Shown: positions 4,189 through 63,829 of the stretch, piece after piece | Layout: every line of letters begins with the position of its first letter | Numbering within the stretch: the first letter of the stretch is position 1 | Assembly (NCBI RefSeq): GCF_037392515.1 | Contig: NC_090282.1 | Coordinates: 33,903,054 to 33,967,053, forward strand | DNA from: Haliotis asinina | Taxonomy: Eukaryota > Mollusca > Gastropoda > Lepetellida > Haliotidae | Direction: 5' to 3' | DNA: 64,000 bases | Notes under the pieces: model-generated | What the model was told of the DNA's origin: nothing | Databases searched by the model: none | The model's input: only the letters and a program-made list of their open reading frames with translations | Program-made: the position numbers and the translations under genes

Positions 4189-7100
4189 ATGGCATCACAA
4201 TTCATTGCAGTCCTGCTCTTGGGTTTTCTGTCTCCAGTCCTTAGCACAAGTACCGGTAAATAGACATTTATTGACAGATCAGCCTGTTGATAATGCGTAG
4301 AGGTCAGGTACACATCGTTCGTCAAGAACGTGGCCATTATAATGATTATAAAGCCTTGCATTCTTTAATACAACAAAGTAGTTTGTTTTCTGTCATAATT
4401 CTAAAGATAATTAGGACGAGAAATGTCTTTTTATTGTTTCACAGTTTATGAGATTTGTGTACACTGCAGCAAAGAGACACGTCATGTGACTATTAACCTT
4501 CCAGCGCCTGTCAGGCAGCTGGGACCCTCCTAGAAATAATACCCAGTCTGTGATTATGTGTCTAGTGAGGAACTAGTCAGATGGAAACTAGGCGCTATAT
4601 ATATGAATTGTTTATTATTTATGTCGTGCCATGGATGGAACGTGGAGTTCGACTTGAGACATAAATAATTCATTTCTATTGTTCAGTTTTGTCTCAACAT
4701 TAACACCTAAGTAATATAGGAAATAATATATCGAGCAACGAAGTTGTGAATTCTAGATTCTCCCCAATTGTAATCATAGGTCTCCCATATATATCTATGG
4801 CCACTGATTATTGAAGGGTTTCGGAATGCTGTGGACTTGACTTCCACGATTAATGCAACAATGCTTTTGTGAACAAATGACATGGACAGGTTATTACCTA
4901 GCTGTGTTGTTTTTCATTCTTACAGATGCATGTTTTACGGACATTCATCTTACCGGCGCTATGATAAACATAACTTCTCCGGGATTCCCGTCGTCGTATG
5001 GCCCGTAAGACACGACGTCCAATACCTTACTATCATGACATGCCCTTTACGTGATCTTCATTACACTCGTAATCTTCAATCTTCACACACACACACACCC
5101 ACACACACACACACACACGCACGCACGCACGCACGCACGCACACGCACGCACACGCACACACACAAGATCTTCCCAAATTTTCAAATTTTACCTTATCTA
5201 TTGGTACAAGTGGCTGCAATTAGTCTGAACAGGTAATGTGATATGATATTAACCTACTAAGATTATACCTGACGAATTGATACATAGTACAAGGGCACAA
5301 GCCACAGTCATGTTGTTCATTCGAGACTCACCTGTACAAATAATACTGATTTTTAATTGCTTCAAAACGCCAAGTCTGTCTAAATGCAGTTGAAATGCCA
5401 GATAATAATACTTTCATACTAACGTAAAAAGGAAGATTTTCAAGGCAATATATCTAACGAAATAACAATAAGATTACTTTCATTTACAAAAAAAGGCAAA
5501 AAAAGCTTCAGCCATCAGGTCAAACTGAAACACTATTGATGCAATGAAAGAAAGAATATGATGAATAAGGATAAGAAAATAGATGTTCTATTTATTCACA
5601 CAGTCAATAAATGTATTTATTGCCAAACCGTTATTGAATTTCAGCAGACATTTGTCGGACTTATACCAGTATATTTGCATCCTCATCATGGTCATTTCTT
5701 TTTACGCGTTGTTTCAGTAATATATCCTGCTCTTGGAGGATTCATGCATCGTCACCGGAATATCTTGTGGGCATAAACTATTTTCAATCCTTGGATTACA
5801 CGTACCTTTGTGATCGTGACATTTTGTCCTTCTATGACGGTAAGCACACGATTTGCAAAATATCGGACTTTGTTATATGGAGAAGACTTCGTGTGAGATC
5901 ATGCTTCTGTGTTTGGGGGCAATCAATGTCACCAGAAAGCAAATATTTGTATAATAAGTATCAAATATTGGTGTATCCACCTTTAAGTTTGTGGTCATTG
6001 GTAAAACCCAGAAAAAGAACTTTTCAGTGGTGAGGTACCATGTACATTATCAAACAGCAATAAGTTCTCGTGATTCCTGTAAAACTAAAGTTTCACTCAG
6101 AGCAATACTCCATTCTTGCACATCGGGTCGACATGAGATCCGTCTATATTTTAGATGGGACTTTTTCTGACGTTGGACATAGTTATAACAAGTTGCAATT
6201 AATTTCCCCGTCTCGTCCTAACAGCCAACCAACATTTCAGACCATAACCTATACATACATTCTTCATACGTGCTCGGTTAGCCGACAGGAGGTAGTAATT
6301 ATTATAGTGTATCCTCTCGACCAAATCACAATGTAGCGATGACTGCAGCTGTAAGTAAGGGAGTTTACGATATGTATGACTCGAATGCTATTTTCATGAC
6401 CAGGACCAGATAATTCAAGTGATTTGCTGTTGGAACTCTGTGACAGTAGAGCATCTTTGGGCAGTATCCTAAGCGATGGACCCACCATGTACATCCAGTT
6501 TACTACCGGTGCTGCAACTAATGGACTATTTTTTTTGCTGAACGTCACTGACGTTGAAAGTAAGTTGACCATGAGGAGGGGCGTCACCAAAATAATTTGT
6601 GTCTCTGGTGTAACACTACAGAGGCCTCAGTTTTCACATGACGGCCAAACCAATGAATATGAGTCCGTCATCACTGTTGGTGCTTTCGGCAGATTGGTTC
6701 ACGGTTTTCATAATTTGGGGATATTTTATTCTGACTTGGTATGATAAAACAATAAGAAAGTTTATCCAGTAGTGACATTTTCAATGTAGTTTACACAAAT
6801 TGACGAACTTTATTATTGTACTGGCTTTAAAATCCAGAATCACATCAATGAACATTGCAGGATGTGACGGGAACTTAACGGCTACATCCGAGGAAGGAAA
6901 CTTCACATCCCTTAGTTTGATTCACACCACCTTTGCGTAAGTCAAACACAATGTTTTCTTTTTCTCTAATCATCCTTTTTCAGTTTCATGTTTCTCAAAC
7001 TGAATTCAAATTCATCTGTACATGGCACTGACAACCTTCAAAGGTTGACGGCAAATGCATTTTGTGAACGATGATACTAGTATATATTTTTATTTGCCTT

Positions 7101-7624
7101 GTTTGAAAAATTCCCTTTTATTTATTCTGGTTATGGTTATAAGTTGTTGCTCAATTATCCGTTATTTCAGTAATCAAAAGTGCACATGGATAATAACAAC
7201 GGAAAACGAAAATGATACTGTCAAAGTGACAATTAAGGGAAATGATACTGTCAACGTGACAAACAAAGACCAATTGTGGCACCTTTCAACTCGATGCAAG
7301 CATGATATGGTTCGTGTTTATGACGGAAACACAACTGAAGGTAAGGCAACATAATGGCATAGGTGTATTCATATCTTGTACACAGCAGCCCGATGTAGTT
7401 TACGTCTAATAACATGTTAGATTCCGGACTTACGCCAAAATGGACTTTTTGACACTCAATGTAATTTGAGTCGGACGATCGAGCCTGGTTACACTTTGCA
7501 AATTTGGCTTTGACATTAAAAGAGATTTATTTGCTTTTCTGACAAGCTACATGTACAGATTATTGTGCAGTCACAAAGGGAAATATTGTTCGGTGTGAAC
7601 AACGTAAAACGTGTATGTGTGTGC

Positions 7625-7657
<33 letters not shown>

Positions 7658-10600
7658 GAGGGGGAGAGGGGGAGAGAGAGAAATCGTAAGTAATGTATAC
7701 ATAAATATAGCTTTCATATCATATTTTCATAATTCAGCGGCCCAGTTTATTGGTGAATTGTGTTCGACCGTGAATACGACATATTACAGCTCAGGTAACA
7801 CACTGTCGGTGGTGTTTGAGAAATTGACCAGCAAGGGTGTGCAGCTGCAGTATACTGCAACAACAGGTATGTTTCCTTAACGATCCAGCGCACAGTGGTT
7901 ACCACAACTACTAGACAGAATACGCGGTCGCGGTAACGTGGTTTTGCTCTTAAAGACGTATGCTTATTTTGATTACATGTTTGTAAATCCTCTATATAAC
8001 AACATTACTACTGATACCTTCAGCTTGAAATAAGACACTAGCCTGTAGTGATACCAGTCTCTGGTTATGTCACAGAGGAAGCGATTAATTTTATCAAATA
8101 TTGCGTTGAATTCACATACGAACGTTGCATTCTGTCATCGAAAGCACGTTTCCGTGAAAACCACAATGCCGTATTCTGAAACCAGCTTTGTTACGGATAA
8201 ATGAATTTTGACATCTCTGTCAGTTTCATTTGTTTCGATGTCAAATGAGGAGACCTAATGTTAACACGACGAGATCTTTGTTACAGAAAGCGACTGTAAC
8301 AGGACATATTACATAAGTGGTCCTTATAACAATCCTGTTTATATCCAGTCACCTGGATACCCTGATTCCTATGACAGGTATGTTGAAGCAAGATAATGCA
8401 CTTCCACATAAGTGATACCACACACAAATGCTTGTCAAGGCAATTCTTCAAGGCATTTACAGGTTAAGATCATGATATTCTAAAGTAATGGGGTTATGAT
8501 AACTTTCATACGACTTTTGTCTTTGAATTCATAACCAAGCATTCATCACACCAATGGCAAAACATTATGTTATTTTCAAATCATGAGTGAGTTAACATTT
8601 AACGTCACATCGGCAATATTTCAGTCTTATCGTGACGAGAACCATTAATATCATACATAACAGTGAATGGTAAATGGAAAAAAATATGTCAACGAAGGAC
8701 AGTAAAACAACTAGATTATCACAGATAGATATTTAAAACTAATAATTAAATCTAAAACAGTTTAACTATAGAGGACGGATCACTATAAAACGGGATATAG
8801 GCCGCAAACAACTGAATTCAAATTATATTTGTTCTGTAAATGGTTCCCTTTTCTATAATATTATGTATAATGCTAGGTATAGCATGTTTACTTATATATC
8901 ATTGCACACCTCGATTGCTGTTGACTTGTCTTTATGTTGTTTCAGCGACCTGGAATGTGTCATAGTAATCATCGACCTGGGGTACATACCAAACTTGAAG
9001 CTTCACGTCGTTAATGCAGATATAGAGGGAGACTACCCACAATGCGATAATGACTCCGTAACAGTTTTTGGAGGTACGTGACTACGAGTTTTACCTTACA
9101 AAAAGTTACACACTTGAGAAGTTCACAGAACCTAACATTTGCTGTGCTCTATAACCAATACCGGTTATTGCTGGCTGACAAGGACGTCTTTCACAAAGTT
9201 GAAAGGAACGGGCCCAAATTAGGGATGTGATGCCCGTAGGCTGGTTTTCACATGTATCACTGCTTACTCCATATACTCCATCGACTGGAGAAGTTGGTCA
9301 ATTACGAGGGTCAACAAAATACCCTCCCGTTAAATGTCCTTTCTTTGTTTTCCTTTGCTTCTCATCTCTTTTGTTTTGTGTGCATGTGTGTGTGTGTGTG
9401 CGCGCGCGCGCGTGTGTGTGTGTGTGTGTGTGAATGTTTCCTGATACCTACTGGCATCACGAAATGTTTGTGATCAAAATATAAAGTATGCTCAACTATC
9501 GCGTCTTTTTTTCAACGGACCAACGAGAGTGATTAATTATTATCAGATATTAACGTTTTATAAATGCATAATAAATGTTTCTCCTATGACAAGAGTTTCT
9601 GATATTAGATCTGACTAAAAAGCATATTTTCATGTGAAATTCTCGATCTTAGGGGATCAGGGAACTTATCATCATATTGGCGAGTTTTGTGGAAATTCAT
9701 CAGTTTCTCCGGTTGGGCCCTACTATTCAAACGGAAGGACCATGAAACTCGTATTCAAATCCGACAGTCATACCAGCGGGGCGGGATTTCAAGCTATCGT
9801 TTCTCATAGTTACAGAGAAGGTAAGTTCAGAAGTGTTATAAACAAATGACAGCTCAAATTAATAGACTGACATATACAAGAGAAGGTCAGGTCTGGTGCA
9901 TTGTGATTTTTTCTTCCAAAGACTGAAGCGGCGGTGGTACATATTTTCATTGCGATTTGCATGTTCAACATTTTGTACTCTGTGCCAAACCCACACACAC
10001 CGTATCCGAACTCAACGCTGTTAGTGCCTGGTGTTCCTTGCACAGTTAGTCGATATTGACGGGTTCATGACATGCCCTGAAATGGTCGACAGGTACAGCA
10101 GGTGATTATCATCTTGTGGAACCTCTTCCAGTTCTAGAACTGTCAGATGTCTGCCCAGTCTTACAGCGCGTATCATTTGTCTGATGGCGGTATTTCTTGT
10201 ACTGACGGAGGTTCTGGCAATATTACACTATTCAAAACGTCTCGTGCTCCACTGGCATTGTGATGTGTGATTTCAAGATAACGATACTTTCAAGTCGCAT
10301 AGTATGTAAATGTATTTAATGTTTCAGTGGTACCTTACCAGTCACGGAATTGCGGACCCAGATATATCACTGCAACCACAAATCCAGAATCTATCAATTC
10401 CCCGGGATACCCTGTGCTTTCTCCAAGGTAAGTTCACACATCGTTACCTTTTCCTCTTACAATCCGATCAACAGGAGCAACCATCACTCACCAATTATTC
10501 AACAAGCTGTGTCATGCTTTTGATACTTTAAATAATGCAAAATAGGCTGTTTTGTTACGGGGGAAAGTGGGGTGAGGGGATGCCTTAAAATAGGTTCCGT

Positions 10601-13600
10601 CTGTCATTGCAGATTAGTCATTTAGGAAGTTGAATTTAAAAACCGTTCCAAATGTTTCACCAAACTTAGCACAGAAATAGAACTGTTCAACACTCTCCTT
10701 CCACTTGATTTGGCATAGTCATAACTAGTTGACATATTCATGAAGAGTATTTTGCCATTATCTGTGTATTGATGACTTTGTCGTTTCGTTGTTGAAGCAA
10801 CGCCGACTGTATCTGGGTAATAAAGGCCTCGGACCCAAAGATGATGGTGCGGATTGACGTACTTGACTCTAATATTCGAAGTCAGTACTTTCTTTACCAA
10901 ATGTTCTGCGACCGCAGTCGTGTCACTGTTCACGATGGTGAGTACTTGCTTCCATCATGAGTACAATAGAATGATTTACGCAAAAACGCACTTAAACCCT
11001 GAGGACTGTGAGGTTCTAGAAGAAAACATAAACCCAAACAACGCCGGACATGGGCGCGTCCCTCCGAATATGGTAACAACTTTATATCATGTCACATGCA
11101 TGATATCTTGTTGATATCACTATACTCATAACCTTTTCAGATACATAACATGAGGAGCATCGTACTAATGTTACCAAAATGTTACGATTTATTTCCATCC
11201 CAAATGTAATCATGCAAACCCCCTTGCCGAAGAGCTGCGCAACAGTGGCTGGAAAGTAATTGGACTCCATTTTCTAAAACCTGAGATAATACCGTGGAAG
11301 TAGCATTAATTATATATTCAGTGCGGTACGTAACTATCACACTACAATTCTTCTTATAGAGAGGTTAAATGCTATAATGTAATATTCACCTTAAGGTGCA
11401 TACATATTACAATACGGCTTCATGAAACGAAAAACATTTTTCATGTTCCACTTCTCTGAATGTTTTGCAGGACCTTCTATCTTCAATACTACTCTTCTCT
11501 CCTGGTGCGGCAGATCAAGGCCGATTCTACAGAGTAGTGGACCAACCATAACAGTCCAATACCATGCACAAGATGTAAACAATGTCAACGGCTTCAAGTT
11601 CAAATATTTTGCCACTAACGGTGAGAAGTCTTTTATGAGGACAGAGTGTATGAGTACTATGTTAAGCTGCTGTTAGCAATGTTCCAGCAATTTCAGGGTG
11701 AGGAACACCAGAAACGGGCGTCACACGCGATACCGAAGCGGCTCGACGATCTAACGCCTCAGCAACTAGGCTACGCCACCGCATATTGTAACAATAAAAT
11801 AAAAACAGCTTGTGAAACACATTAAAATGTTTCAATTAATGATACGATTGCCAACACTGAAGACACTGAGACATATCACATGGAAACTGTTTTGTTATTT
11901 CTTTTCAGAGACTGGTACATGTGGAGGTACAGTCAATATCACGACCGATAAGGAGACAAATTTAACAGTGCCATATGGACCGTAAGGAAATGTATTAACA
12001 GTTCCAATCGTAAGGTTACTGCGAGCGCGAGAAACCTAATAGTCATAAATGTATTTGGTTGTGATATACTGGAGTATGTTGACACGTCAGTTCTACTTGA
12101 ACACTTCAAAGATATGCGTCACACCCTCCAACCGTCTATAAAAAACTGAAAATAAACGTTGGACTTACGAACCAGGCTAGCTATTCTCGAAACGTTCATA
12201 GCCCTGCGAAGTTAACAATTCTTAGGGCTACGAACGTTTCGAGAATAAGGGCCCAGTTCACGCGTTGCCTGTTCTTTGGGGTACAATTGATCCATAAATT
12301 TGTTCAGTGCGTTCAAATGTCAGGGCATCGATAAAGTAATTCGTCCAGTGTGTCTGAAAACACATCGGTGTCTTTCCGTAAACTATTAAATACTCTATAC
12401 GTACTGTGGAGTATACGTCAACATGTATCCATAGAATACATCTACCAGGGCATCATTCTTAAGCTGATAGTTCGCAGTTCGCTGATGTCTTAGCCACAAT
12501 ATAGATGTTAAACTGGAACAACGCGGAAATATCAATGGTGTTTTGTTGAATTTAAATTTAAAGAAATACAATTAGAGAAACTGCAATTTCGTACGTATAG
12601 TATCAGTTAAACACTTTAACAATGTAACAGATGCATATAACACTGTATAGTTGTGGACGTGAACAATGCTGACTGTTTCGTATTCAGTTACCGAGACTGC
12701 ATCTGGACCATACATGCCCCCTCAACTACGAATATCCAGGTTACTACAAATGCAGTGAGTTGGTACACCTCTTCGTCATGCAGCGCCAATTACCTGCAAA
12801 TTTACGATGGTAAGATACATATTTTATATACACCTGTTTCTTTAAAACGAAGTTTGATGTGCAGGAGTTTTCCTTTTGGCATCAGTGAACCAATCCTTCC
12901 TATGCTGCACACATAACGAATCGAGATAATCGTCAAAATAAATGGATAATGTGGATTGTTTCTCATTATGCCGTATCACTGATAAGTGTCTTTTACGACT
13001 GCGAAAACGTGGAGTACTGATACTGTACAGAGGCTGTAATTGGCATTCCTATATCTATTAACCTGAATTCAGGTAATTACGACAACAGCACTTCAACAAC
13101 CCACGGGAAGTGGTGTGATTACGTCAACGCGGACTTCATCAGCTCTGGAAATGTCATGACCGTCAGGTTCTACTCCAGCGCAATTAACAGAGGATTACAA
13201 ATGAATCTTAAAGCTGGTCACTTCAGTGGTACGTGGGTGTCATGAATTAGTTAGTGAGCTAGGTTTCTCGCCACTTTGAACAGTATTTTGTGTGAGGCCG
13301 TAAGCAGAAGAGAATTTCAGAGATTTACAATTTATTCGGGAGGTTGGGATAATGGTAATACACCTGGAATCATAAAGAGGGGGCACTACGAGACGAACCC
13401 TAAAGGACGGAATCTGACAGTTAAAGGACGCATGTCTGTATAGTGAATTGGAAAGTAAAAAACCGGTTGGCATTGTCCTTATTAAGAATGACGATGGTGA
13501 CGTATGTATAATACGGGACAGTGATTGAGTGAATGGTGTATGTTATGCCGCTTTTAGCAATTTTCAAGCAATACCATGACTGGGGACACCGGAAATGGAC

Positions 13601-15343
13601 TTCACACACACGTGGGGAATCTAACCCGAGTCCTCGATACGGCCAGCAAACGCTTTAACCACTGGAATTACATATGCAAGAAAAATTAATATATATGTAT
13701 GTTTCAGCTTCACTGAAGAAAAGTCTATCAGCTAGTTACTTGACCGGATACATAACTTCCCCAAATTATCCATTTGATTACCCGAGGTATGTATTAGCTT
13801 ATACTACTGAAGTTGAAACGCATGAAATAAAGTATAGACGAAGGAAGAAGACTGTATATTGTAAATCAACATAAAATTTCCAGCATTGTATAAATACATG
13901 ATTTCTTCTTCCGAAGCATCTTTACACGTGTGGCCTAAGCATACGAGAAACGAATAATATTTATTTCAAAATTCTTTTAAGTCTGATAACTACGTAAGGT
14001 TTGTTTCTCAACAAGCTTCACTTGATGATGAATTTGATTCATTCAAGTAATGTCGAGTCAACATGGAAGATTGACGCAGGTTCGGGTTATCACGTGTACA
14101 TCGACGTTGTCGTCTCAAGGCTGGAATACTCTGACGGTTGTCAAAATGACTTCATGGAAGCGTTTGATGGTATGATTGATATTTACATTGCTTGAGGTTT
14201 TATGGATGTATTGCTTTTCTCGAGGGATATACGATCTGATGTACGGCCCTTTGTAGCAATGTCACTAGGGCCGGTAGGCGAGGGATAGCACTATTACAGA
14301 GAGGCGCACATCACACCGTATTAACAGAGGGAGAAGCATACAACGCATTTATCTTACCGCCATGTTGAATGTACAAACTATCATTTTGAGTGCGCAAACG
14401 ATTCAATGTAAGAAATAGTTTACATGAAACAGTGAAAGTCGGTGAAATAAATGTCTTCGTAGGGGGAAAAAACAGCTAATCGAACTATTTTGGAACTCCG
14501 ACTACTGCATCCGTCATATTATGACGTCATACGATTGTTAAGGTAAACATCGCCAGTTCTTGTTGCATGTATACAATGCATTAGCATTGCGGGCCATTTG
14601 AACAAAAACGTTATTAAAACGAGTGTATTTCTAATATTGTAGGCGGAGACGCCAATGCTCTCTCTCTGGGACGCTGGTGTGGAAGCAGTGTACCAACCAA
14701 AACAAGTTCGAGCTCTCTGATGTTCCTGAAATTCAAGTCGAATTCTCATAAAGTCGACAAAGGTTTCAAGATCTCATATTCTGCAGAGATGGACCCTATT
14801 GGTACGTTCTCACAAAAGTATACCCAATCACGCATTTGTTTACATAGCTACGGCTATATCGCGTTCATGAATAACTAGGAAACAGTTCCGACGAACATGT
14901 AAATCTGTTCATGATGAAAACACATGGCTAAAACATTTTCTTTGCTGAAATTGATTTTTTAAAAATTTGATATGACCGATTACAATTCGCAAATATATGC
15001 ACTAGCAACTTGGTAACTCCTAACCTTAGTTCTGAGTGTTGGAAACTCAAAAATATCATGATAACGATTGTTGTGTATGTTATATTTCTTCTTTCCAGAC
15101 TTTTCAACTCCCACAAGTAACGTGAGAGTGAGGGCTATAGTGGGTGCTTCAATTGGGAGTGTAAGTCTGCTATTCACCATAATAGGCGCAATATGTAGAC
15201 TGTGTGCGAGGTCATCCGCCGACAGCAGACAACCGGCTGCCAGCAGCAATACAGGCCAGAGACCTATGGACGCAATCATTCCTCCAGCAACGTACTCCAG
15301 CCCATCAACATTCAAAATGGAACATACATCAACCACATTTTGA
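4189..15343 (+). CDS. Gene A: six-CUB-domain single-pass membrane protein (cubilin-like), 20 exons
   Basis: Spliced CDS of 2532 nt (843 aa). Exons: 4189-4255, 4926-5004, 5718-5839, 6404-6559, 6861-6936, 7171-7340, 7738-7866, 8287-8377, 8946-9073, 9653-9820, 10328-10427, 10798-10937, 11471-11620, 11909-11981, 12688-12809, 13073-13228, 13708-13786, 14048-14169, 14643-14801, 15099-15343. All introns are GT-AG and the frame stays open throughout. Residues 1-20 form a signal peptide (FIAVLLLGFLSPVLS core). CUB domains end near residues 141, 266, 395, 525, 642 and 762. CUB1-5 each have four cysteines and mostly end exon b in a YDG-type motif. CUB6 keeps only the last two cysteines (GCQND, RWCGSS). 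One helix spans about 775-795, followed by a 48-residue tail ending FKMEHTSTTF. N-glycosylation sequons occur (NLT, NFT, NRT). CUB domains bind proteins or glycans outside the cell; the ligand here is unknown. Exon 12 uses an AAG acceptor. A is the most divergent of the three (exons 6, 8, 12, 15 and 16 differ in length from B and C). Confidence 0.88.
5084..5165. repeat. (AC)n/(GCAC)n microsatellite in gene A intron 2
   Basis: An uninterrupted run of AC and GCAC units about 80 bases long, just downstream of exon 2. The long reading frames across it are composition artefacts. Confidence 0.95.
7611..7680. repeat. (GT)n(GA)n microsatellite in gene A intron 6
   Basis: GT units pass into GA and G-rich units, about 60 bases before exon 7. 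Confidence 0.93.
8585..8818 (-). mobile_element. LINE 3'-end fragment in gene A intron 8
   Basis: Read on the minus strand it ends with the TCGTGACGAT.../GCCGATGTGACGTTAAATG/TTAACTCACTC tail of the LINE at 1-3538. The upstream part matches its 3' UTR (TGTCCTTCGTTGACA, AGTTGTTTTACTG). It is 5'-truncated and noncoding. Confidence 0.7.
9377..9432. repeat. (TG)n(CG)n(TG)n microsatellite in gene A intron 9
   Basis: Alternating purine-pyrimidine tract with an internal CGCGCGCGCGCG core. Such sequence can adopt Z-DNA, but no function is shown here. Confidence 0.93.
11664..11783 (-). mobile_element. tRNA-derived SINE relic in gene A intron 13
   Basis: On the minus strand this shows a degraded box A (TAGCCTAGTTG-like) at the 5' end, and the TTGCTGGAACATTGCTAAC segment that precedes the ACTC tail in better copies (compare 23152-23275). 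It is old and 3'-truncated. Confidence 0.6.
12181..12249. repeat. Short inverted repeat (hairpin) in gene A intron 14
   Basis: The arms at 12181-12204 and 12226-12249 pair with one mismatch (TATTCTCGAAACGTTC and its complement) around a 21-base loop. It looks like the ends of a small fold-back or MITE-type element. The outer ends and target duplication cannot be fixed. Confidence 0.7.
13521..13665 (-). mobile_element. tRNA-derived SINE relic in gene A intron 16
   Basis: The minus strand reads CCAGTGGTTAAAGCG (box A region), then GGACTCGGGTTAGATTCC (box B-like) and a diverged body, ending near ACTCAATCAC. It is of the same family as the copies at 11664, 15916, 23152, 34768 and 55241. Confidence 0.68.
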
Positions 15344-15492
15344 ATGTATCCTCAAAGGGATTTATAGCTAAACTGTCGGACAAAATGAAAGTTTCAATCC
15401 ATGCGGGGCTGTAGCCAAAACACCACACAAACGTTGTTTAGCCGATAACGATCTGTAGTATACAGTTATGATGATTCTCCGTGCATTTTATC

Positions 15493-15498
15493 AATAAA
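15493..15498 (+). promoter_or_regulatory. Poly(A) signal of gene A
   Basis: AATAAA lies 150 bases after the gene A stop codon and is the first canonical hexamer there. This gives a 3' UTR of about 170 bases if cleavage follows at the usual distance. Confidence 0.5.
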
Positions 15499-15999: not shown

Positions 16000-16033
16000 T
16001 ATCTTCCCTACAAGCATATATAATAATGTACTA

Positions 16034-20441: not shown

Positions 20442-20442
20442 A

Positions 20443-20504: not shown

Positions 20505-20505
<1 letters not shown>

Positions 20506-26297: not shown

Positions 26298-26347
<50 letters not shown>

Positions 26348-51900: not shown

Positions 51901-54900
51901 CTGGATGGAAACTGCATTAAAAAAAGACAAAACAGTATCATGAACTTGAACATAGATTTACTAATCTGCACATCTATCAAAGTTGTAAATGAGATCAAGT
52001 TTCTGGGTCTTATTTTTTACCGCCACTAGACGTCATTAAATCTCTCGGGGCTAAAAACCTGAAGACACTCGGACAATTGATCAAACTTGATCATGACTCC
52101 ATTGTATATGATGGATCGTGTAAAAGCAACCATTCACTATTAGATTATATCCATCACCAAGGTCCACGACTTGGATCTTTAAGAACTTCTGCTGACAGTC
52201 TCTACGTCGAGGCAAATGATCCATCTCTTACACATAGACATGTAAACATATCTTCACAATATACTACAAACCTATACTCTGACGAATCTAACCCTGCATT
52301 TAAGTGTGTCTTCGATCCCTCTAGGAGGAGTTATACAGTAAGAAACCTTGACTTCTCCCACTTCTAGGGCTGAGAATTGGACCATGTATTTCTGCTGCCG
52401 GTATTGTGTTGGAGAATATATCTCCTTCCCGTCTTCTTTCTTCTTCTTCTCCATTTTAGTAACTCAAGTTGTTAGTCGCTGTATCCTCAAGGGGGGTTAA
52501 ATACTGTAAAAGTGTTCTCCTCCTTAGAAGATACGTAAGTACCAACATTCACAGTAAATTTAAACCCTCCACCTTTTAATAGATCATATGTGTCAATTTA
52601 ATGTCTGGCTGGATTTGTCAAAATTGCTAACAGATGGTTGGATAGTGTAAATGCCGTTAGGGCCAATGCAGGAAGCAAATGTACTGTAACTCCTCATGAT
52701 CCCAAGTTGTTGGTGATCTATAGCAATTATTTTGTATTATTCTCTATGATAATATTGTTTTATGATTACCTGTTAGTTTTACATTCTCTGTGATACTCCA
52801 GTATTTTACTGTTCTTCGCCTGAGGTTTGTTTTCAATTTATAAAAGTATTCATGATAACTGATTGTTATCGTTACGATATGTCTGAAATATTGCCGATGT
52901 GACGGTGAATATTCACTCACTCACTCATATATACTTAGGACAAGAGCAGCGATGTTTTTGCTTTTGGAAACGGGACACTGGTTGTACACACCAAAATAAT
53001 AGACCCTAATTGGGGATGTGGCAAGATGTTTTTAACGCATCTCTTATGTGTAGGTCGCCGTGGATGCATATATCACATCCACTGAAAAAAGGTGGTACAT
53101 TACAAGGGTCACAGCGTGACCTTTCACATTGGTTACTTTTGTTTCTGTGCCTCAATGTTGACTGATACCTAGTGTCATCATTGCTTATTATTGATCCATT
53201 CTTGAAAGCTTCGACATGGAATCTGTTTCGCCAGAACACCGTGATAGATGAAATATTCCTATGTGTCAATATTTTGTCTGTTTCTCCATTACTGTCTATA
53301 TATTTCTCCTATATATTATAGTTTTGTTCCTCGTAACTTTCACTGGGTAGGTTGATGTTATGTGAATGTGAGTCTGTCGTTCCTAGGATATAATGGAAGT
53401 TACCGTCCTATTGGCCAGTTTTGTGGAAATTCATCAGTGTCTCCGGTCGGTCCCTACTACTCAAATGGAAGAAGCATGAAACTGGTATTCAAGTCCAATA
53501 GCAATACCAACGGGACAGGCTTCCAAGTTGTTGTTTCTCATAGTAACAGAGAAGGTAACTTCAGAAGTATCACCATAAAATGGCACGCTTCAGCCGATAA
53601 ACTGATGTGCAAAAGAGGTCAAATATGATGCTTAGGGCGATTCTGTCAATGTTGACGGGCTATGTTTTGGGCAACATGTACAATATTCAGATGTCACAAC
53701 GCCAGCACTTAACACTTATCTCCTATTTTAATATATTCCCTAACACCAGGGGCGTAGGGGCGCATTTTCTTTCACATGCATCAGTTTCTATGGCTTCTAT
53801 TTGTTGTCAGTGTTGAAAGAACAATAACCGTAAGTTCCAAATGTTAATGTACCGTCCGTTTTCAAGTTGAGAACTTTTCTCATTTTTCCGATTACAACGA
53901 TATACGTAATTCACATGATATGTGCTTGTATTATTGTCTCAGTGGTACCTTACCAATCAGAGAATTGTGGACCCAGATATCTCACGGCAACCACAAATCC
54001 AGAATTTATCAGTTCCCCAGGATACCCCGTGCGTACTCCAATGTAAGTTCAGATTTCGTTACCCTTTCATTTTAATGTATTACTCCAGTTTTTCTGCAAA
54101 CCAAATTTTGCTTTGACACACCACAACTATTCGAACCTAACTGTGGCTATATTAATTTTGTGCACAACACTTGCATATTCTGCGCATAACCTCTGGATAA
54201 GTGTCTTTTTCGTTGGCCATCATTTTGCACTCTCTTTACAACCTCATGCAATGCTTTTCCAAAATGTACCATGTTATATCTAGATAGAGCACGAGCTATA
54301 TAGATGCTTACTATAACGCATGTTGTCGCACATTTCCATTATCCGGGATGCATTAAAAGCTTAGTTTTCCATGCGTACCAGAATGCTATGAATCTGTGAT
54401 TTTCCTGATTCGTGTTTTATCAGCACCACAGCCGATCTTTTGAGTCTTAACAAAGTAAACCCAAACATACATCTGAAATCTTACTAGGTACTTTGTGCTG
54501 CCATTAAATATGAACCTGCAAGACAGTGGTTCGTTTACTCGATCTTTGTTGCAGCAACGCCGACTGTATCTGGATAATAAAGGCCTCAGACCCAAACATG
54601 ACGGTTCAGATTGACGTAATTGACTCAGATATTCCAACTCATCCTCTTATACATATATATTGCGGACAGAATCGCGGCTTTCTTTACGATGGTAGGTACC
54701 GGTTGTCCTCATTAGTTTGATACACGGACTTTCTAGAACAATGTGAACATTTCCTCTACCTTCCCATAACAGCCACGTAACTCAAATAGGTTCCAAGTAG
54801 CTACAACTTTCTCAGACCCTGAGATTTATATGAAGAAACCATAAATCCAAATAAAGCAGGACATGGGTGCCCCATTGTCAAATATAATTCATGACGGTAC

Positions 54901-57900
54901 ATGACCATGCGTGTTATTTGTTGTCATAACAGTTCACCAAAAGAAACGTGTGCCACTAAACACATGTGAGTGAGCGAGTTTAGTTTTACGCCACACTCAG
55001 CAATATTCCAGCTATATGGTGGCGGTCTGTAAATAATCGATTCTGGACCAGACAACCCAGTGATCAACAACATGAGCATCAATCAGCACAACCGGGAACC
55101 GATGACATGTGTCAGCGAGTCTGACCACCCGATCCCGTTAGTCGCCTCTTACGACAAGCATAGTCGCCGTGTATGGCAAGCATGGGTTGCTGAAGGCCTA
55201 TTCTACCCCGGACCTTCACGGGTCACTAAACACATGTATCTACAGAAGCGTCGAAGCGTTTGCTTGTCACCCGAGTTCGATTCATTTATTGGTACAATGT
55301 GTGAAGCCCATTTCCCCCAGTAATATTCCTGGAATATTGCTAAAAGCGGTGGAAAAGCATGCTCACTCACTGTTTTATACCGAGAATTCATTTTCATTTT
55401 CCAACTGTCTGAATGTTTTGCAGGGCCTTCGATGTTTGATACGTTACTCCTCTCTTGGTGCGGCAAGACATTGCCGAGTCTGCAGAGTACTGGACCTGAC
55501 ATAACAGTTAGATTCAAAGCGCGCGATGCACGTAATATGACTGGCCTCAAACTGAAATATTTTGCGACGAATGGTGAGTGTGTTATTTTTTTCTGAGAAT
55601 TAAAACTTGACATAATTACACATATAATATGAGTCATAGCATTGGTGTAAATATTCACTTAGAAGCTGAACTGTTAATTCCTTTCAGAGCCGTGGAGCTG
55701 TGGAGGTGCAGTCGATCTCACGACGGAGAGGGAAAGAACTCTGACAGCGCCATTTGAAAGGTAAAGACATGTAATAATACTCTATTCTTATACCTTTAAT
55801 GATGATGAACTCATATTGTAAAGGTGAACCTGATATTGCGTGACAATATTGCTCACTATATAGAGCTTGAGTTTTGACACCCGTGAAGATCCGGGTTAGA
55901 ATTGATCTTCAACATGTGGTGACTTATGGGATCGATTCCCAACTGCGCAGATCGATGCCCGTGATGTTGATCACAGGGGTATAAAGCTAAAGTCAGCAGA
56001 GTTTTCACCTACTGTAATATATTGACACGTCGAGTTTACGTGACACTTTAAAAATAATGACATCTGTTACATAAGACTACCCTCTACAGACATTGAAAAT
56101 ATGTGATGGACTAATGAGTCACATCACGTGTCAGGTGATGTTCGGGATATTATTGATCCTTAAAATTAATTTCCATCTATTCTATGACGTGATAATATAT
56201 ATTGTAGAGCTCATAGTTTCCACGATGTGTTAGCCTCACCGTTAGTAGAAAATGTGACAGCCAGGCGAACGGAAATTGTGATCTGATAAAGTTTGCTTAG
56301 AATGCAATTTGAACCAAAACAATACAAGATCCAGTCACGCCACGTTGACTTGTGATGCGTGACGTTTGATTAAATTCGGCGTTTGATTACAACCGATTAC
56401 AACCGAAATAGTGGGAAAGACTGATATATATTTGTCAGTTTAGCATTGTAACTGAACAACGGACTGCTGAATGTTTTGTAGATTAATTACCCAAGACTGC
56501 CTTTGGACCATACATGCCCCGACAAATACGAACATAAAGGTTGATGTGGATCGTATAAAGTTCTTGTTTCCTCCATCATGCAACGTCAGTTACCTGGAAA
56601 TTTACGACGGTAAGATACATATTTCGTGTACAGCGATTTTGGCCATAAAGAGTTTACAATTTGTCCCCAGCAATAATATCATCACCTCATCTTAAACGTA
56701 GTATCATTGTAATTCTAGCAATTCCTGAATAGGCAGGCTAAATTTGCCTACAGATGAAGGGACGATATAAATCCAGGTAAGGTCCATGCAGGTAGCACAG
56801 ATAGTCCCCATGGTCCCTGGTATGGTGATCTACCTTCAGTTATAGCCCGTTTTCATATATGCATATAGCATCGTCTTTTATAATTAAGCTGTTTTAGATT
56901 TAAATGACTAGCTTTAAATTTATGTCTGTGATAATCATTTTTTTGCTGACCTTCATTGACAGGTGTTTATAATTTAATTTCATGCATAATCATCATGAAT
57001 CTATACCTTTTTTTAGTCACGGGGGTATGGCTGAAATATTGCCGATGTAAGTCTTAACTCATTGTCAGTTTCTACAAGACAATGGACAAGTGAATCTGAC
57101 TTGTACTTCAGCTTTAATTACACATTAACTCGAAATTTAGACGAAAGAAGTTAAAAGTCAATGTTAACTCGTCATCAGTCAGATTTGTTTCAGTAGTATT
57201 GAAAGTACTCTCTCTGTGACTTTTGAAAACGCGACTAATGAAACATATATCACCTATAACTGTAAACGAAGTTGGTGTTTGCACTTCTACTTATGATTCC
57301 CTGTATTTAGGTAATTACGACAACAGTACTTCGACAACCCATGGAAAGTCGTGTGGGGACTCCAACACCGACTTCATCAGCTCCGGAAATGTCATCACCG
57401 TCAGGTTCCACTTCAACGTATCTAACAGAGGAATGTTAAGGATGGTTCTTAAGGCGGGTCACTTTAGTGGTACGTCAGTGTTCAATGCCATGAGTTTGTG
57501 AATACGTTAGGTTTGGTACTACTTTGAACAATATGTTCAGTCAGATTATGAAGGATGGCGAATACAGAAAAAAATAGATCTTCAGAAAGATGTTGATAAC
57601 AAGCAGGAATATCATAATCTGAGTATTTTGGGACTTGAATTCAAGGGGATCAATCCTTTCAGTTAAAAAACGCATCTCTGCATAGTGAATGGCTTAGTAT
57701 ACAAGTATACATCTAGATACTGATTACAGATAACATGCAAAATTAATCTTCTTATATGTTTCAGCTTCACGGACGACGAGTCTTGCAGCTAGTACAGCTT
57801 ATCAAGCCATTACTTCCCCGAATTATCCTTTTAATTACCCGAGGTATACAGTCTAGTACAGTACCCTCGAATGAGGTCAAAAAGACTACTAAATCTGCAA

Positions 57901-59641
57901 TATTCTATGCTAATCGCAATGCCAAGTTATAACATGATAGTTATCGTTTAAGTGTGTGGCTTCATTAGAGAAACGAGAAAACTAATAAAATATATTGGGT
58001 ATTGATCACTGTCATCGACAGCCATAATGTCTACTTTTTTGAAGTCATATAATCCATGTGAAGTTTGCTTCTGAAACATGTGCGTTTGGTGAGGAATTCG
58101 ATGACCAAATTTGCCTTACTTCATTCAAGTAATGTCGAGTCAACATGGACGATTGAGGGAGATGAAGGTTATTACGTTGGTATCGTAGTTATCTTCTCAA
58201 GCCTGGAGAAATCCGGTGGTTGTCAAAAAGACTACATGGAAGCGTTTGATGGTATGATTAATGTTCACATCTATTTACTTTACTGTCACGAGTCACGATG
58301 ATGCAGTGATGATGATATAATTACTCTTTTTTGTGGGTATTTTAAAAAGCAAGATTCACTTGACTTGGTGTGGCTTCCTGTGTATTTAATACAGTTATGG
58401 GTACTTTTAAAACACATCAACGATTAAAGTATGGGTTTTCCAGAGGATACAGTGTACCATTCTCAGCACTGACCAAATGCCATATTATCTAAGGCACGTT
58501 TTATCACTCATGTCATCATCCCTAGTCAGGAAGGTGTGGGTAGCCTGTGGCTGTGTCAGTTGTGAGTACTTGTAGTAGGTTTGGGGTGATTCCAATCATC
58601 TGGATCAGTGACCAAACCATTATTGTGTAATTGTAATTCGAATCCTGTAGGCGCAGACTCCGGTGCCCCCTCTCTTGGACGCTGGTGTGGAAGCAGTCAA
58701 CCACGTATAATGGCTTCAAGCTCTGTGATGTTACTGAAATTCAAGTCGAATTCCCATACAGTCGACAAAGGTTTCTGGATGGAATATGCTATGTACAAAT
58801 ATCATACTAGTAAGTGCACAGTTGCTTTACACTTACATAACCTAATTCATGAATATGAAATAGCTCCGACGTGCATCCAAGACTGAGTGTTTTCGTGAGA
58901 ATCTGTACGATCGTATGCTAAAAGTGTTGTTGGCATTCGATAAAGGCTAATGCCCTGCAATTGCATGACATTGCATCAAAGGTAATTAAAGCTACAAATT
59001 TGAACAGTTAACATGTGCTGAAACAACAAAATTGTTATTATTAAATGAAGTAAAAGAGAGCCTTCGGTATGTATGTTTCTGAGAGTATTAAAAGTCAGTG
59101 TACACATTAACGTTCATATGTTTCAGTGTTTTAAGTGATCAGTTTCTTACATAAGGACTGAAATTATTTGTTGATTTTCTTATTGTCAATGATGTTGTTA
59201 CTCCAGTCACATGACAAAAATGTGTAAATATTTCCCCAGGCACAGCGGTTTATTGATATCGAGGACACTATCAGACACATAGAAGTCAATTCATTTCAAG
59301 TTGCATACGACGGATCGTTTTCAACTGGGGAAAACGTGTATCTCTGTATCTCTGTATCTCTGTAACTATTTACCCTTTACAGTGGAAACACAAAATATGT
59401 TGAATGTTTGACATGTACGTGTAAATACCTATTTCCAGAATTGCAAGACATCACAAGCAGCGGGAGACTGGGGGTCATCATTGGAGCTTCCGTAGGAGGT
59501 GTTTGCCTGTTACTTGTCATAGTAGGGGCTATATGCGGAATTGTTCGCCGTCAAAGACAGCCGGGCGCAAGCAACAAGATGTGGACAATTCCCGCGGCAA
59601 GTCCAGAAACGTTTAACTTGGAATCTAAGTCCATTAGTTAA
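45980..59641 (+). CDS. Gene C: six-CUB-domain single-pass membrane protein (cubilin-like), 20 exons
   Basis: Spliced CDS of 2469 nt (822 aa). Exons: 45980-46046, 46928-47006, 47854-47975, 49280-49435, 49692-49767, 50040-50191, 50416-50544, 50936-51017, 51383-51510, 53387-53554, 53943-54042, 54555-54691, 55424-55573, 55688-55760, 56482-56609, 57311-57469, 57765-57843, 58130-58251, 58651-58809, 59439-59641. Signal peptide MASQITAVLLLGILYPVLS. CUB domains end near residues 141, 260, 386, 515, 635 and 755. CUB1-5 have four cysteines each; CUB6 has only the last two. The helix is about 768-791 (VIIGASVGGVCLLLVIVGA) and the tail is short (31 aa), ending ETFNLESKSIS. Exon lengths equal those of gene B except exons 1 and 20. 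Introns 1, 3, 9, 12, 14 and 15 contain SINE or LINE insertions, and intron 19 contains a copy of the gene's own 3' flank. The acceptor of exon 4 is AAG. Function is inferred only as extracellular binding at the cell surface. Confidence 0.88.
46234..46565 (-). mobile_element. SINE (ACCCGTGAAG family) in gene C intron 1, interrupted
   Basis: TTTAACGCCGCACTCAGTAAC and CTATGGCGGTCTGTAAATAA, then CTGACCACCGCATCCCATTG and GCCGCCTCTCATGATA, match the reverse of the 54968-55223 element. It is the orthologue of the gene B copy at 21598-21772. An unrelated block of about 145 bases (46261-46405, starting AGGAAAGGATAGGACAGGAT) interrupts it. Confidence 0.65.
46261..46405. mobile_element. Unclassified insertion inside the intron 1 SINE of gene C
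   Basis: The block splits the SINE and is missing from the gene B copy. It contains ATAACGCGCATATCC and TGGTGCATGCTCAATGCGC. No coding sequence, no clear inverted ends and no sure target duplication are seen. It is probably a dispersed repeat. Confidence 0.45.
48140..48262 (-). mobile_element. LINE 3' UTR fragment in gene C intron 3
   Basis: The reverse of GACTGAGGGGATGGTGTAAAT, GCTGGGGTCCATGCAGG and CCCATGGTCCC, as found in the LINE 3' UTR at 3200-3320. It lacks the ACTC tail. Gene B intron 3 does not have it at this place. Confidence 0.65.
51895..52928 (+). mobile_element. Internally deleted LINE copy in gene C intron 9
   Basis: It begins at the end of reverse transcriptase (IKVVNEIKFLGLIF) and continues with DHDSIVYDGSCKSNHSLLDY, SLRTSADSLYVEANDPSLT and NPAFKCVFDP. 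It keeps a segment (LLGLRIGPCISAAGIVLENI) that is missing from the copy at 1-3538. It then jumps straight to the 3' UTR (CTGTATCCTCAAGGGGGGTT), so RNase H is deleted. It ends in CACTCACTCACTC. Confidence 0.8.
54968..55223 (-). mobile_element. Whole SINE (ACCCGTGAAG family) with 14-base target duplication, gene C intron 12
   Basis: On the minus strand the element starts ACCCGTGAAGGTCCGGGG and ends GGAATATTGCTGAGTGTGGC, then GTAAAACTAAACTCGCTC. The target duplication CACTAAACACATGT is perfect (54954-54967 and 55224-55237). Gene B lacks it, so it is a recent insertion specific to gene C. It is a 256-base noncoding element and the best copy of its family in the window. Confidence 0.85.
55241..55371 (+). 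mobile_element. tRNA-derived SINE in gene C intron 12
   Basis: GCGTTTGCTTGTCACCCGAG, TTCGATTC (box B), ACAATGTGTGAAGCCCATTT and TGGAATATTGCTAAAAGCGG, then GCTCACTCACTG. It is the orthologue of the gene B copy at 34768-34911. Confidence 0.72.
55878..55992 (+). mobile_element. SINE (ACCCGTGAAG family) relic in gene C intron 14
   Basis: It starts ACCCGTGAAGATCCGGGTTA and keeps GATCGATTCCCAACTGCGCA and GATGTTGATCACA. The 3' part is nearly gone. It is the same insertion as 35418-35562 in gene B. Confidence 0.7.
56750..57055 (+). mobile_element. LINE 3' end (or LINE-tailed SINE) in gene C intron 15
   Basis: It begins GATGAAGGGACGATATAAATC, at the same point as the copy at 3545-3871, and keeps CCATGCAGGTAGCA, TGGTATGGTGATCTACC and TGAAATATTGCCGATGTAAG. 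The tail is decayed. Confidence 0.7.
58896..59313. repeat. Copy of the gene C 3' flank inside intron 19
   Basis: About 418 bases repeat 60533-61046 in the same orientation with few differences (CGTGAGAATCTGTACG...TTGCATACGACGGAT). In gene B intron 19 the flanking bases are joined without it, so the block was added in gene C. The source lies downstream of exon 20, so the two copies are direct repeats flanking the transmembrane exon. Confidence 0.85.
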
Positions 59642-60938
59642 TATACGTACATCTGAATTTTTATATAAAATATCTGGAAAAAGAAAGTATCAATGTATGC
59701 CTGCTGGCCAAAAATAGTGTTCAGCGATACAGGAACAGGGACAATACGTATAGATAACAGATCATGTCCTAGAAGAAATCTCCAATTTCCAATTCTCACA
59801 ACATTGAACTGAGTTTTGTAAACGTGATCGTAAGTTGAGTTGGCACACACCTGACATCCAAAGCACAAATGGACGCCCTGATTCACAACTGTCGTTTTGA
59901 CGTCTGACTCTGTAAACTAACCGTAAGCGTTGTCAGTGGTCACGATGCCATGAAACAAATCCTTTACATTCAACCAATATGCAGCCTGATTCTCGATGAT
60001 TCAAGGATGAACCAAGGTAATGGTGCGACATATATTCCGTCACTATATGAGTGAACGTCTCTGAAAGCAGCCTCGACCCAATACCTCCCCGAGAACACCC
60101 ACCATTATTGTGTAAGTCGCACATGTTTTATTAGTTAACAGCACTTCAGCTGCCAGCTTTGTACTGTTCCCATCGTTGATATTTTTATGGTTGTCAGAAA
60201 TGCCTATAAATGACATAAATGCTGCGACAGAAGCATGTGCGTGTGCCTGTCATCCCTTATAAGCATATTATAAGCATATTTTATGCCAAATAACGTTATG
60301 CTAATGTTTGTAATATTTTAGTCAAATCCCATCTACATGCTTATACTTTAACTAATCCGGCACTTGATCCATTTTTTAATTTGCACTTGTGGTAATTTGT
60401 CAATGTTTATTCCAGTGTGAAATTATTCTAGGAATAAATTGACTGAGGCTAAAATGTTCCACTAGGAAACGAAACTATTGGGGGGACGAATTTAACTAAA
60501 ATCATGTCTGTCATTTTGGAAAGGAATGTAAACGTGAGAATCTGTACGGTCGTATGCTAAAAGTGTTGTTAGCATTCGATAAAGGCTAATGCCCTGCAGT
60601 TGCATGACATTGCATCAAAGCTACAAATCTGAATAGGTAACATGTGCTGAAACAACAAAATTGTTATTATTAAATGAAGTAAAAGAGAGCTTTCGGTATG
60701 TATGTCTCTGAGAGTATTAAAAATCAGTGTACACATTAAGTTTCATATGTTTCAGTGTTTTGAGTGATCAGTTTCTTACATAAGGACTGAAATTATTTGT
60801 TGATTTTCTTATTGTCAATGATGTTGTTACTCCAGTCACATGACAAAAATGTGTAAATATTTCCCCAGGTACAGGGGTTTATTGATATCGAGGACACAAT
60901 GATGTTGTTACTCCAGTCATGACAAAAATGTGTAAATA

Positions 60939-60970
<32 letters not shown>

Positions 60971-61640: not shown

Positions 61641-63068
61641 AAACAGTCCAAACAGTTAAATTGATAACTTAAGTCCAGGTTAAGGTCATTACACACATCT
61701 GACACATCATTATGTCCAATGCTATGATTTCTGTTTGTCTGTTCATTCTATGTAATTTATTTGTGATTGTTTGTATTACTGGAGAGGTATACAATTAGTA
61801 TAAGTCTTTTACTTACCAATCTACGGAAATTTGTCTTCAACCAAACATTTCTCTGCCCCTTCAGTGGAAATTAACGCAGACTAAAACTATTCATACCAGC
61901 ATTTCCAGCTATTCATAAAACAAGCATTGTTTCATTAACAATCCAGTTTGTTGCGGAAGATGATGAATACACTAAACCTTAATTTATATGTAATTAGATC
62001 ACAGTTAGTACTTGAAAAAGTTTGCACTTATGAATGGCATATTAGATGTTTGCTCCAATCATGTGTAGACTCACTCACTCAAAATATAAATTAAAATAGT
62101 TGGCAATTAATTTATGTACAAATTGAGGTCCCCCCCCCAGTTTCCTGATGTCTAAGCAGGTAAGATGTCTTGGATGTTTGACCTAGTTGTGACTATTTAG
62201 ACAGAGATATTGAACTGACATTGACATATTCCAGAATATTGTGGTCATTTGGCTAAAATCCTCTCTAGTCCATTTATGTACTGGCATATATTATTTAGGG
62301 CACGATGGGGACAAATATATTGGATGAGACATGTATACACTTGCGAACCACTAACAATAGGAGTCAATAAGTGTTATTCTGACGTAACAGGATGTGAAGC
62401 AGCAACAATTGTTGATTGTCTGAGTGAAAATATGAAGGAGTGAACGTGTGATTTTCAGCTGATTTTCCATCTGCAAGCTTGACTCCTTTACACAGACAAC
62501 ATAATTACGAAGGTACTTGAGTTCACATGACCTATAAACGAATTTGTAGCGACACGGTCCGTAAGCGGTAGAGAAAACACTATATAAGAAATATAAATGG
62601 GTCACTGAAAGTCAGCGGTGACATCATTTCTGTGAATGAGGTTTATCATCATTATCATCATTTTCAGTTGACATCGAATGAAATAACACAAAATGCAATC
62701 ACGGGATTGCTCGGTTCATTCGGTTGAATGACAAGAGGTAGAATAAACCATCATAACACACGCTTTGATTGATTTGCATATGGGCATAACACTACATGGG
62801 AGTTTCTCAAATGTTTGTTGAGTCTAATGTTAATTCTAATGTCCCATTGAATTTGGAAAGGATTACCTGCTAGAGCAATTTGTTATTAAGCTTTGTCCGT
62901 ATGTAATGCCGACAACAGGCAGATGTTCGTGTTCATTGATTATAAAGCTTCAGACTTCAAATCAAAGTACAAACAGAAACAAATGTTAAATGGACACATA
63001 TTTATGTTGATCTACAAATCTGAACAAAGCAACATTGTTCTAAGTACACTGTGTTTCTATAAGCATGT
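61641..63068. other. Intergenic DNA between convergent genes C and D, no supported gene
   Basis: AT-rich sequence with a nine-C run at 62131-62139. Gene D transcription would end somewhere in this stretch; no poly(A) signal can be chosen with confidence. Confidence 0.45.
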
Positions 63069-63829
63069 TCATATCTTGTTTAACAGTTTATCATTGTCAG
63101 GAGTCGAGGGCGTGTCGAGGGTGCCACCTGGAGCTTTGACACTCACAGAGCTCCTGTTATTTTTACCCTCATTGATACCGGCTCGTTTCGAGGCACATTT
63201 GCAGATTGCTGTCGGAAGACCAAATAGTAGTGCCACTCCCGCTATACTTCCCACAATTATTAAGGCAACTTTCGGGAAGCTGGTATCTGTATCTGTAGTG
63301 ATAAACAAAGGCACTTGCGTTAACATAGGTCTTAAGATGAGTAACAATTAATATGTTTCGTTACTGCATAGTAATACATAAATGAAAATAATTAAATAGT
63401 TGTAACTGTAGTAAATATTAACCCTAGGAAACCTGTAAGACTAGATATCGATTGGTTCATAAAACGAGTGAAATTGTATCTGCAATTCAAAATATTCATA
63501 TCACTTGTTCTAAGGTAAACAAACTTAAAAAGGATCGAAACTGACAGTATCACCCAAGCCCGATTTTTGTTATTCAACAAAGAACATGTATTAATCTGAA
63601 CGATTCTTATTTTACTCTGCTTTGACGTGGCTACACATATTAGTAAAAACAAAACGTATTCAAAGCTTACCAACATCTTTGTAATGTGCCGTGTACAAGA
63701 TGCGGAATCCACTGCCGGATGTATGTGAATTCGTTCTGAATATCAGGAACATGAAAGAGCCCGAACTAGTTTTATTTGGTTGAGATTCTCCACACCAGCG
63801 CCCAAGAGAGGCTGCACTGGAATCAGAGC
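63069..63829 (-). CDS. Gene D (3' part): last CUB half and transmembrane exon of a fourth paralogue
   Basis: Two exons on the minus strand. The exon 63829-63671 (159 nt, the same length as exon 19 of A, B and C) encodes SDSSAASLGRWCGESQPNKT and HTSGSGFRILYTAHYKDV, the C-terminal half of the membrane-proximal CUB domain. The exon 63292-63069 encodes TDTSFPKVALIIVGSIAGVA, a transmembrane helix and a 40-odd-residue tail ending NDKLLNKI. Both junctions are GT-AG in phase 1, as in the other genes. The helix and tail differ clearly from A, B and C, so D is an older or faster relative. The rest of the gene lies beyond the right edge, and the gene points toward gene C, tail to tail. Confidence 0.85.

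What the first reader, a model, noticed from the sequence alone, without database searches (positions are those of the whole stretch)
4189..63829. A cluster of paralogous six-CUB membrane receptors, three in tandem and one inverted
Seen: A, B and C each have 20 exons of matching phase, a signal peptide, six CUB domains, one helix and a short tail; D shares the last two exons on the other strand. Known: CUB domains are extracellular binding modules (cubilin, tolloid, spermadhesins). CUB-only type I membrane proteins in a tandem array are unusual. Inference: an expanding family for recognition at the cell surface (self/non-self, gamete, microbe or nutrient binding). The ligand is unknown and nothing in the sequence settles it.
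Basis: partly seen in the sequence, partly recalled or inferred. Interest (0 to 1): 0.8.

Follow-up and report, generated by a model that had tools for sequence, protein, structure and literature searches.

The report
Tandem six-CUB membrane receptors, marine snail
A mollusc, probably a marine snail, carries about a dozen side-by-side copies of a gene for a cell-surface protein built from CUB binding modules and a membrane anchor; it looks like an expanded set of surface recognition proteins, but what they bind is unknown.

Summary
A, B and C can each be modelled as an intact 20-exon gene (843, 838, 822 aa) with the same intron phases, which also emerge without imposing them. Each encodes a hydrophobic N-terminus, six CUB domains, one helix and a short tail. 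D is a fourth paralogue on the other strand. The window holds only its last two exons, and its model has five CUBs, CUB1 not being found.

The window is a slice of something larger. Exon searches of the whole genome find 12 genes of this type in about 0.39 Mb, plus further related or truncated CUB copies nearby. In the copies examined each CUB position forms its own clade, so whole genes were duplicated.

The organism is a mollusc, probably a vetigastropod.

Most likely function: a germline set of surface recognition or adhesion receptors; the ligand is untested. Selection on A, B and C is mainly purifying (dN/dS 0.51-0.63); a raised ratio in CUB3 of three recent copies is only suggestive. I rate it a new variant of a known kind: clustered single-pass membrane proteins, as in snail GRC/PTC2, with a different architecture.

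The parts
4189..15343 (+). Gene A: 20-exon model, 843 aa; hydrophobic N-terminus (signal peptide), six CUB domains, one helix, short tail
   Evidence: exon model, control; Pfam CUB x6
21264..39397 (+). Gene B: 20-exon model, 838 aa; same architecture
   Evidence: Pfam CUB x6
45980..59641 (+). Gene C: 20-exon model, 822 aa; same architecture
   Evidence: Pfam CUB x6
63671..63829 (-). Gene D exon 19 (second part of its last CUB)
   Evidence: exon-19 genome search
63069..63292 (-). Gene D exon 20 (membrane helix and tail); the rest of D lies beyond the window end
   Evidence: five CUBs in the D model
4189..4255 (+). Exon 1 of A (signal peptide); counterparts B 21264-21342, C 45980-46046
15099..15343 (+). 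Exon 20 of A (helix and tail); counterparts B 39159-39397, C 59439-59641

Best explanation
A, B, C and D belong to an array of about 12 paralogous genes on one chromosome of a mollusc, probably a vetigastropod snail. The four genes modelled in full (A, B, C, E) encode a signal peptide, six CUB domains, one helix and a short tail; D has five CUBs; the other genes are known from exon matches only. The copies examined arose by duplication of whole genes (shown). I infer that the CUB rod is a multivalent surface-binding arm, that paralogues differ in what they bind, and that the array is a germline repertoire of surface recognition or adhesion receptors, most likely at the animal-microbe or mucosal interface. 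The six tails read share no evident motif, so signalling would need a partner or would not occur. The recognition role is inference.
For: Architecture. Twelve exon-10 places, all on C3 between 33.722 and 34.100 Mb. CUB1 exon 3 at 11 of those 12 genes. An exon-19 place at each of the 12. Each of the six CUB positions is a clade (support 0.86-1.0; 45 domains of nine copies). dN/dS 0.51-0.63 among A, B and C shows constraint. In three recent copies (L029, L030, L032) CUB3 exons 9-10 have dN/dS 1.35 against 0.22-0.47 in CUB4-6, Fisher p 0.0045: (post hoc). A calcium-site triad (Glu, Asp, Asp; recalled) is complete in some domains of some copies and altered in others. Works-like precedent: clusters of single-pass membrane genes controlling parasite resistance in another snail (PMC7494358, PMC4361660, passages seen).
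Against: No ligand, expression or polymorphism data. Overall selection is purifying, without the strong positive selection expected of an arms-race receptor. In A versus C, CUB3 is the most conserved segment (dN/dS 0.25), opposite to the recent trio. I see no immune signalling motif in the tails (read by eye; motif knowledge recalled). Nothing in the sequence favours immunity over adhesion, uptake or gamete binding.
Confidence: 0.42

Rival explanations
1. Cubilin-like uptake receptors: the CUB rods capture dietary or carrier proteins at gut or kidney epithelium and are taken up.
For: The best solved-structure match of the A/B/C profile is a cubilin fragment (3kq4_B, E 7.7e-50). Cubilin binds ligands through CUB domains (PMC5368703 passage). 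D's tail contains a D-x-x-x-L-L string (motif recalled).
Against: Cubilin has EGF domains and 27 CUBs (passage), whereas these have six CUBs and their own helix. I see no tail motif shared between the six copies read. A separate run of CUB exons that looks like a cubilin gene sits on C10 (identity inferred). The cubilin match may only reflect multi-CUB content.
Confidence: 0.2
2. Cell-cell adhesion or developmental co-receptors, with paralogues giving cell-type labels.
For: Neuropilins and NETO2 are CUB-bearing membrane proteins among the 31 solved-structure matches. Purifying selection fits a housekeeping or developmental role.
Against: No domain other than CUB types passes a Pfam cut-off in A-E. 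Twelve copies, some recent, are unusual for a developmental receptor (judgement).
Confidence: 0.2
3. Gamete-recognition proteins.
For: CUB domains occur in the sea-urchin egg bindin receptor and in an ascidian sperm protease whose CUB1 binds the egg coat (PMC9265791 passages). The genome carries egg lysin matches.
Against: Abalone recognition as described uses lysin and its receptor VERL (passage), not CUB arrays. dN/dS of 0.51-0.63 is low for fertilisation proteins (recalled).
Confidence: 0.12
4. Tandem duplication without specialised role (drift and dosage), with many copies on the way to becoming pseudogenes.
For: Truncated exon 16-19 runs lie between full genes (L031). One exon-19 copy has an internal stop (C3:33738424-33738573). 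Several splice sites of the D model score poorly and its CUB5 has lost two cysteines.
Against: A, B, C and E are open over 20 exons, and dN/dS among A, B and C is below 1.
Confidence: 0.06

Closest known systems
Cubilin (intrinsic factor-cobalamin receptor)
   Same: Serial CUB domains; best sequence match among solved structures (3kq4_B)
   Different: Cubilin has eight EGF domains and 27 CUBs (PMC5368703 passage) and, as recalled, no helix of its own; A, B and C have six CUBs, a helix and a tail
GRC and PTC2 single-pass membrane gene clusters of Biomphalaria glabrata
   Same: Gastropod; clusters of single-pass membrane proteins with a large extracellular part (passages)
   Different: 'CUB' has 0 occurrences in the main text of either paper or of PMC10875847 on B. 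sudanica. Most GRC single-pass genes carry fibronectin III domains; the PTC2 genes have no known domain. Those clusters are polymorphic and linked to resistance; this one is untested.
Neuropilins / NETO proteins
   Same: CUB-bearing membrane proteins, matched by profile
   Different: They carry other domains beside two CUBs (recalled); none passed a cut-off in A, B, C, D or E
Egg bindin receptor 1 of sea urchin
   Same: Repeated CUB domains in a surface recognition protein (passage)
   Different: ADAMTS-family protein with thrombospondin repeats; neither found in A-E
Nematode M02D8.5-like CUB proteins (Pfam PF23061, PF23062)
   Same: Multi-CUB protein (from the model names); E reaches 30.4 bits against a cut-off of 30 with PF23061
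   Different: The A, B, C and D matches to these models stay below the cut-offs

Membership tests
CUB domain (Pfam PF00431) | Profile match above the curated cut-off | tested here: met
   A, B, C and E six stretches each, D five; 229.8-281.1 bits against 21.4
CUB domain (Pfam PF00431) | Four conserved cysteines in two disulfides (recalled) | tested here: inconclusive
   Four Cys in 35 of the 36 CUB1-5 domains examined (D CUB5 has two); CUB6 has only two in 9 of 9
Calcium-binding CUB (cbCUB) | Glu-Asp-Asp calcium triad (recalled) | tested here: inconclusive
   Complete in A CUB3; Z CUB1, 5, 6; L029, L030 and L032 CUB5 and 6. Not complete in any domain of B, C, D or E examined; CUB6 of A-E reads Glu-Asp-Asn. 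Columns rest on one MAFFT alignment
Cubilin | EGF domains plus 27 CUBs | tested here: not met
   Six CUBs (five in D), no EGF match in A-E
Cubilin | No helix of its own; membrane partner amnionless (recalled) | tested here: not met
   Hydrophobic helix in exon 20 of A, B and C; partner not tested
Neuropilin / NETO | CUB pair with coagulation-factor, MAM or LDL-A domains (recalled) | tested here: not met
   Only CUB-type models pass a cut-off in A-E
Tolloid / astacin, C1r/C1s/MASP proteases | Protease domain | tested here: not met
   No protease match in A-E
GRC/PTC2-type snail membrane clusters | Clustered single-pass membrane genes | tested here: met
   12 gene copies in 0.39 Mb; helix measured in A, B and C and read by eye in D, E and Z
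GRC/PTC2-type snail membrane clusters | Hyperdiverse haplotypes linked to parasite resistance | not testable with these tools
   One unnamed assembly only
GRC/PTC2-type snail membrane clusters | Sequence homology to GRC/PTC2 proteins | not tested
   Sequences not held; 'CUB' has 0 occurrences in the papers' main texts

The most novel reading that the evidence does not exclude
The array is a hyperdiverse recognition complex of vetigastropods: a germline repertoire of CUB rods whose members differ in which modules keep a calcium-dependent binding site, reshuffled by gene conversion between neighbours, with CUB3 as the variable contact domain. It would serve microbe, parasite or self recognition, as GRC/PTC2 do in Biomphalaria but built from CUB modules.
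Probability: 0.18. Interest if true: 0.75.

Novelty: new variant of a known kind. Interest (0 to 1): 0.42.

Why it matters
Molluscs lack antibodies, and their surface recognition repertoires are mostly described as lectin, C1q and Ig or fibrinogen families (recalled). An array of about 12 CUB-only membrane receptors would add a new scaffold to that list. It would also give a defined locus for tests of copy-number variation, disease association and ligand binding, in a group that may include farmed abalone.

Tried and rejected
Chance or artefact: rejected. Three colinear 20-exon models with the same phases (found again without the constraint) and Pfam E-values below 1e-76 are not chance.

Exon shuffling as the origin of the copies: rejected for the nine copies examined (three of them partial): each CUB position is a clade holding only that position.

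Pervasive positive selection: not seen. dN/dS is 0.51-0.63 for A/B/C. For the recent trio one search gives 0.37, 0.46 and 0.48, but the two values that involve L030 include a wrongly assigned exon 8; only 0.46 (L029-L032) is clean. Exon 8 was left out. The CUB3 signal there was found after looking, is one of four domains compared, and pairs of three copies are not independent.

Gene conversion: B-C synonymous divergence differs among the six CUBs (p 0.0014; with the tail 1.4e-6), while A-B (p 0.81) and A-C (p 0.70) do not. Suggestive, not proof.

Literature: ten searches. Listed of found: 20 of 409; 20 of 912; 15 of 58; 42, 3 of 286,840 (too broad); 15 of 44; 58, 10 of 138 (about myosin); 8 of 110; 4 of 4; 73, 8 of 25 (about Biomphalaria clusters); 12 of 19. 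No listed title or abstract start describes a CUB-only membrane gene array. Most papers found were not listed, and the library is open access only, so absence in print is not shown. Passages were seen of PMC9265791, PMC5368703, PMC11797021 (CUB only in passing), PMC7494358, PMC10875847 and PMC4361660; no paper was read whole.

Species identity: no COX1 match in the assembly, so haemocyanin, lysin and myosin were used.

Structure prediction and fold search were not run: the tool takes proteins read letter for letter from the DNA, and these are spliced across 20 exons.

A genome search with the exon-20 helix did not complete.

Full report
What is in the window. Translated segments of the A, B and C regions align in the same order along the + strand. 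A splice-site search guided by these alignments gives 20 exons for each gene. Joined, they give proteins of 843, 838 and 822 aa from ATG to stop with no internal stop. GT-AG sites were required and the phase pattern was imposed. As a control, sites chosen without the phase constraint, within 30 bases of the modelled ends, give the same phase for 57 of 57 donors and 55 of 57 acceptors, and the very same site for 56 donors and 55 acceptors. The pattern is 1, then (2,1,1) six times without the last, so each CUB is encoded by three exons with phase-1 borders, a symmetrical unit. Identity is 61% (A-B), 64% (A-C) and 76% (B-C). Pfam finds six CUB stretches in each of A, B and C and no other model above its cut-off. 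The most hydrophobic 21 residues lie in exon 20, the next at the N-terminus. In six exons the site chosen to keep equal lengths across copies was not the top-scoring one (A exons 10 and 18, B 3 and 18, C 5 and 19), and A has a further in-frame ATG at 4096; transcripts are needed.

Gene D and beyond. D lies on the minus strand. Exons 20 and 19 are at 63069-63292 and 63671-63829, and exons 18 to 5 run into L009-L010. A signal-peptide exon can be joined in phase to exon 5. No convincing CUB1 exon was found in between with queries from A, B, C, E and Z, only short matches at E above 0.1. Pfam finds five CUBs in the model. Some D splice sites score poorly. The next gene, E, on the same strand, is a complete 20-exon model of 801 aa with six CUBs. 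Z, upstream of the window, was modelled except exons 1 and 7. The imposed phase pattern also applies to D, E and Z.

How it grew. A tree of 45 CUB domains from nine copies (five for CUB1, five for CUB2, eight for CUB3, nine each for CUB4-6) puts each position in its own clade, support 0.86 to 1.0. These genes were therefore duplicated whole. B and C are closest, then A; D and E group near them; Z and the trio L029, L030, L032 form another branch. Synonymous divergence between B and C differs among CUBs (p 0.0014), while that of A-B and A-C does not; exchange between B and C is a plausible cause.

Selection. dN/dS is 0.51 (B-C), 0.63 (A-B) and 0.52 (A-C), so the proteins are constrained. In the trio, CUB3 exons 9-10 have 24 nonsynonymous and 5.5 synonymous changes (ratio 1.35) against ratios of 0.47, 0.22 and 0.22 for CUB4, 5 and 6; Fisher p 0.0045 for CUB3 versus the rest. 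This was found after looking, and I ran no test of the ratio against 1. In A-C the same domain is the most conserved (0.25).

Binding-site clues. The calcium triad of CUB domains (Glu, Asp, Asp; recalled) is complete in A CUB3, in Z CUB1, 5 and 6, and in CUB5 and CUB6 of the trio. It is incomplete in every domain examined of B, C, D and E; CUB6 of A-E reads Glu-Asp-Asn. CUB6 has only two cysteines in 9 of 9 copies. A has 19, B 14 and C 14 N-glycosylation sequons. By eye, the tails of A, B, C, D, E and Z share no motif.

The organism. Sixteen molluscan haemocyanin domains lie in two runs of eight on C2. Six egg-lysin matches lie on C14. A muscle myosin exon is closest to 3i5f, then 2ec6 and 2os8, among solved structures; that these are squid and scallop is recalled. 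Two 8-unit haemocyanin genes and egg lysin together point to a vetigastropod such as an abalone or top snail (recalled knowledge of where these occur). C1q gives 50 matches.

What it works like. The anatomy fits a surface binding rod. The nearest functional precedent I can cite is the GRC and PTC2 clusters of single-pass membrane genes in Biomphalaria (passages of PMC7494358 and PMC4361660), which affect schistosome resistance. 'CUB' has no occurrence in those two main texts, so this is likeness, not membership. A cubilin fragment is the best solved-structure match, but cubilin's EGF domains and 27 CUBs and its lack of a helix (recalled) are not met. Shown: gene models, domains, array, mode of growth in the copies examined, mollusc origin. 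Inferred: surface display, ligand binding, recognition role.

Noticed in passing
G000:C5:72.1-73.9 Mb: Many myosin-head exons lie in a row (125 matches genome-wide, 65 of 339 candidates scored). Two read out are near identical (L038, L040), and the one searched is muscle-type. This suggests a tandem array of muscle myosin heavy chain genes; molluscs are usually described as having one such gene with alternative exons (recalled).
   Followed up: partly
G000:C2:41.78-42.49 Mb: Another cluster of CUB exons with a different exon layout (profile positions 1 to about 62-86 in one exon), several copies on both strands.
   Followed up: no
G000:C2:63.76-64.09 Mb, C3:35.9-37.2 Mb and C1:26-48 kb: Further distant relatives of the six-CUB family, found by exon queries; on C2 and C3 the profile positions matched suggest the same three exons per CUB.
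   Followed up: partly
G000:C10:35.03-35.07 Mb: Dense run of CUB exons over about 46 kb on the minus strand, probably a cubilin gene (identity inferred).
   Followed up: no
L031 (C3:33805001-33813000): Two runs with only exons 16-19, lying between full-length genes of the array: truncated copies or very short genes.
   Followed up: partly
window 46-2991: Remains of a non-LTR retrotransposon (type inferred): reverse transcriptase and RNase H frames; inverted-repeat partners of 2236-3871 near 23.6-24.9 kb and 43.5-44.0 kb.
   Followed up: partly
window 33398-33735: Near-perfect inverted repeat (115-base arms, 99%) around a duplicated 55-base unit, inside B intron 12, next to a weak reverse-transcriptase match at 33037-33465 minus (21.3 bits, below the 29.6 cut-off); possibly a small transposon.
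   Followed up: no
window 58971-59270 and 60600-60899: A 300-base direct repeat, 94% identical, one copy in the last intron of C and one downstream of C.
   Followed up: no
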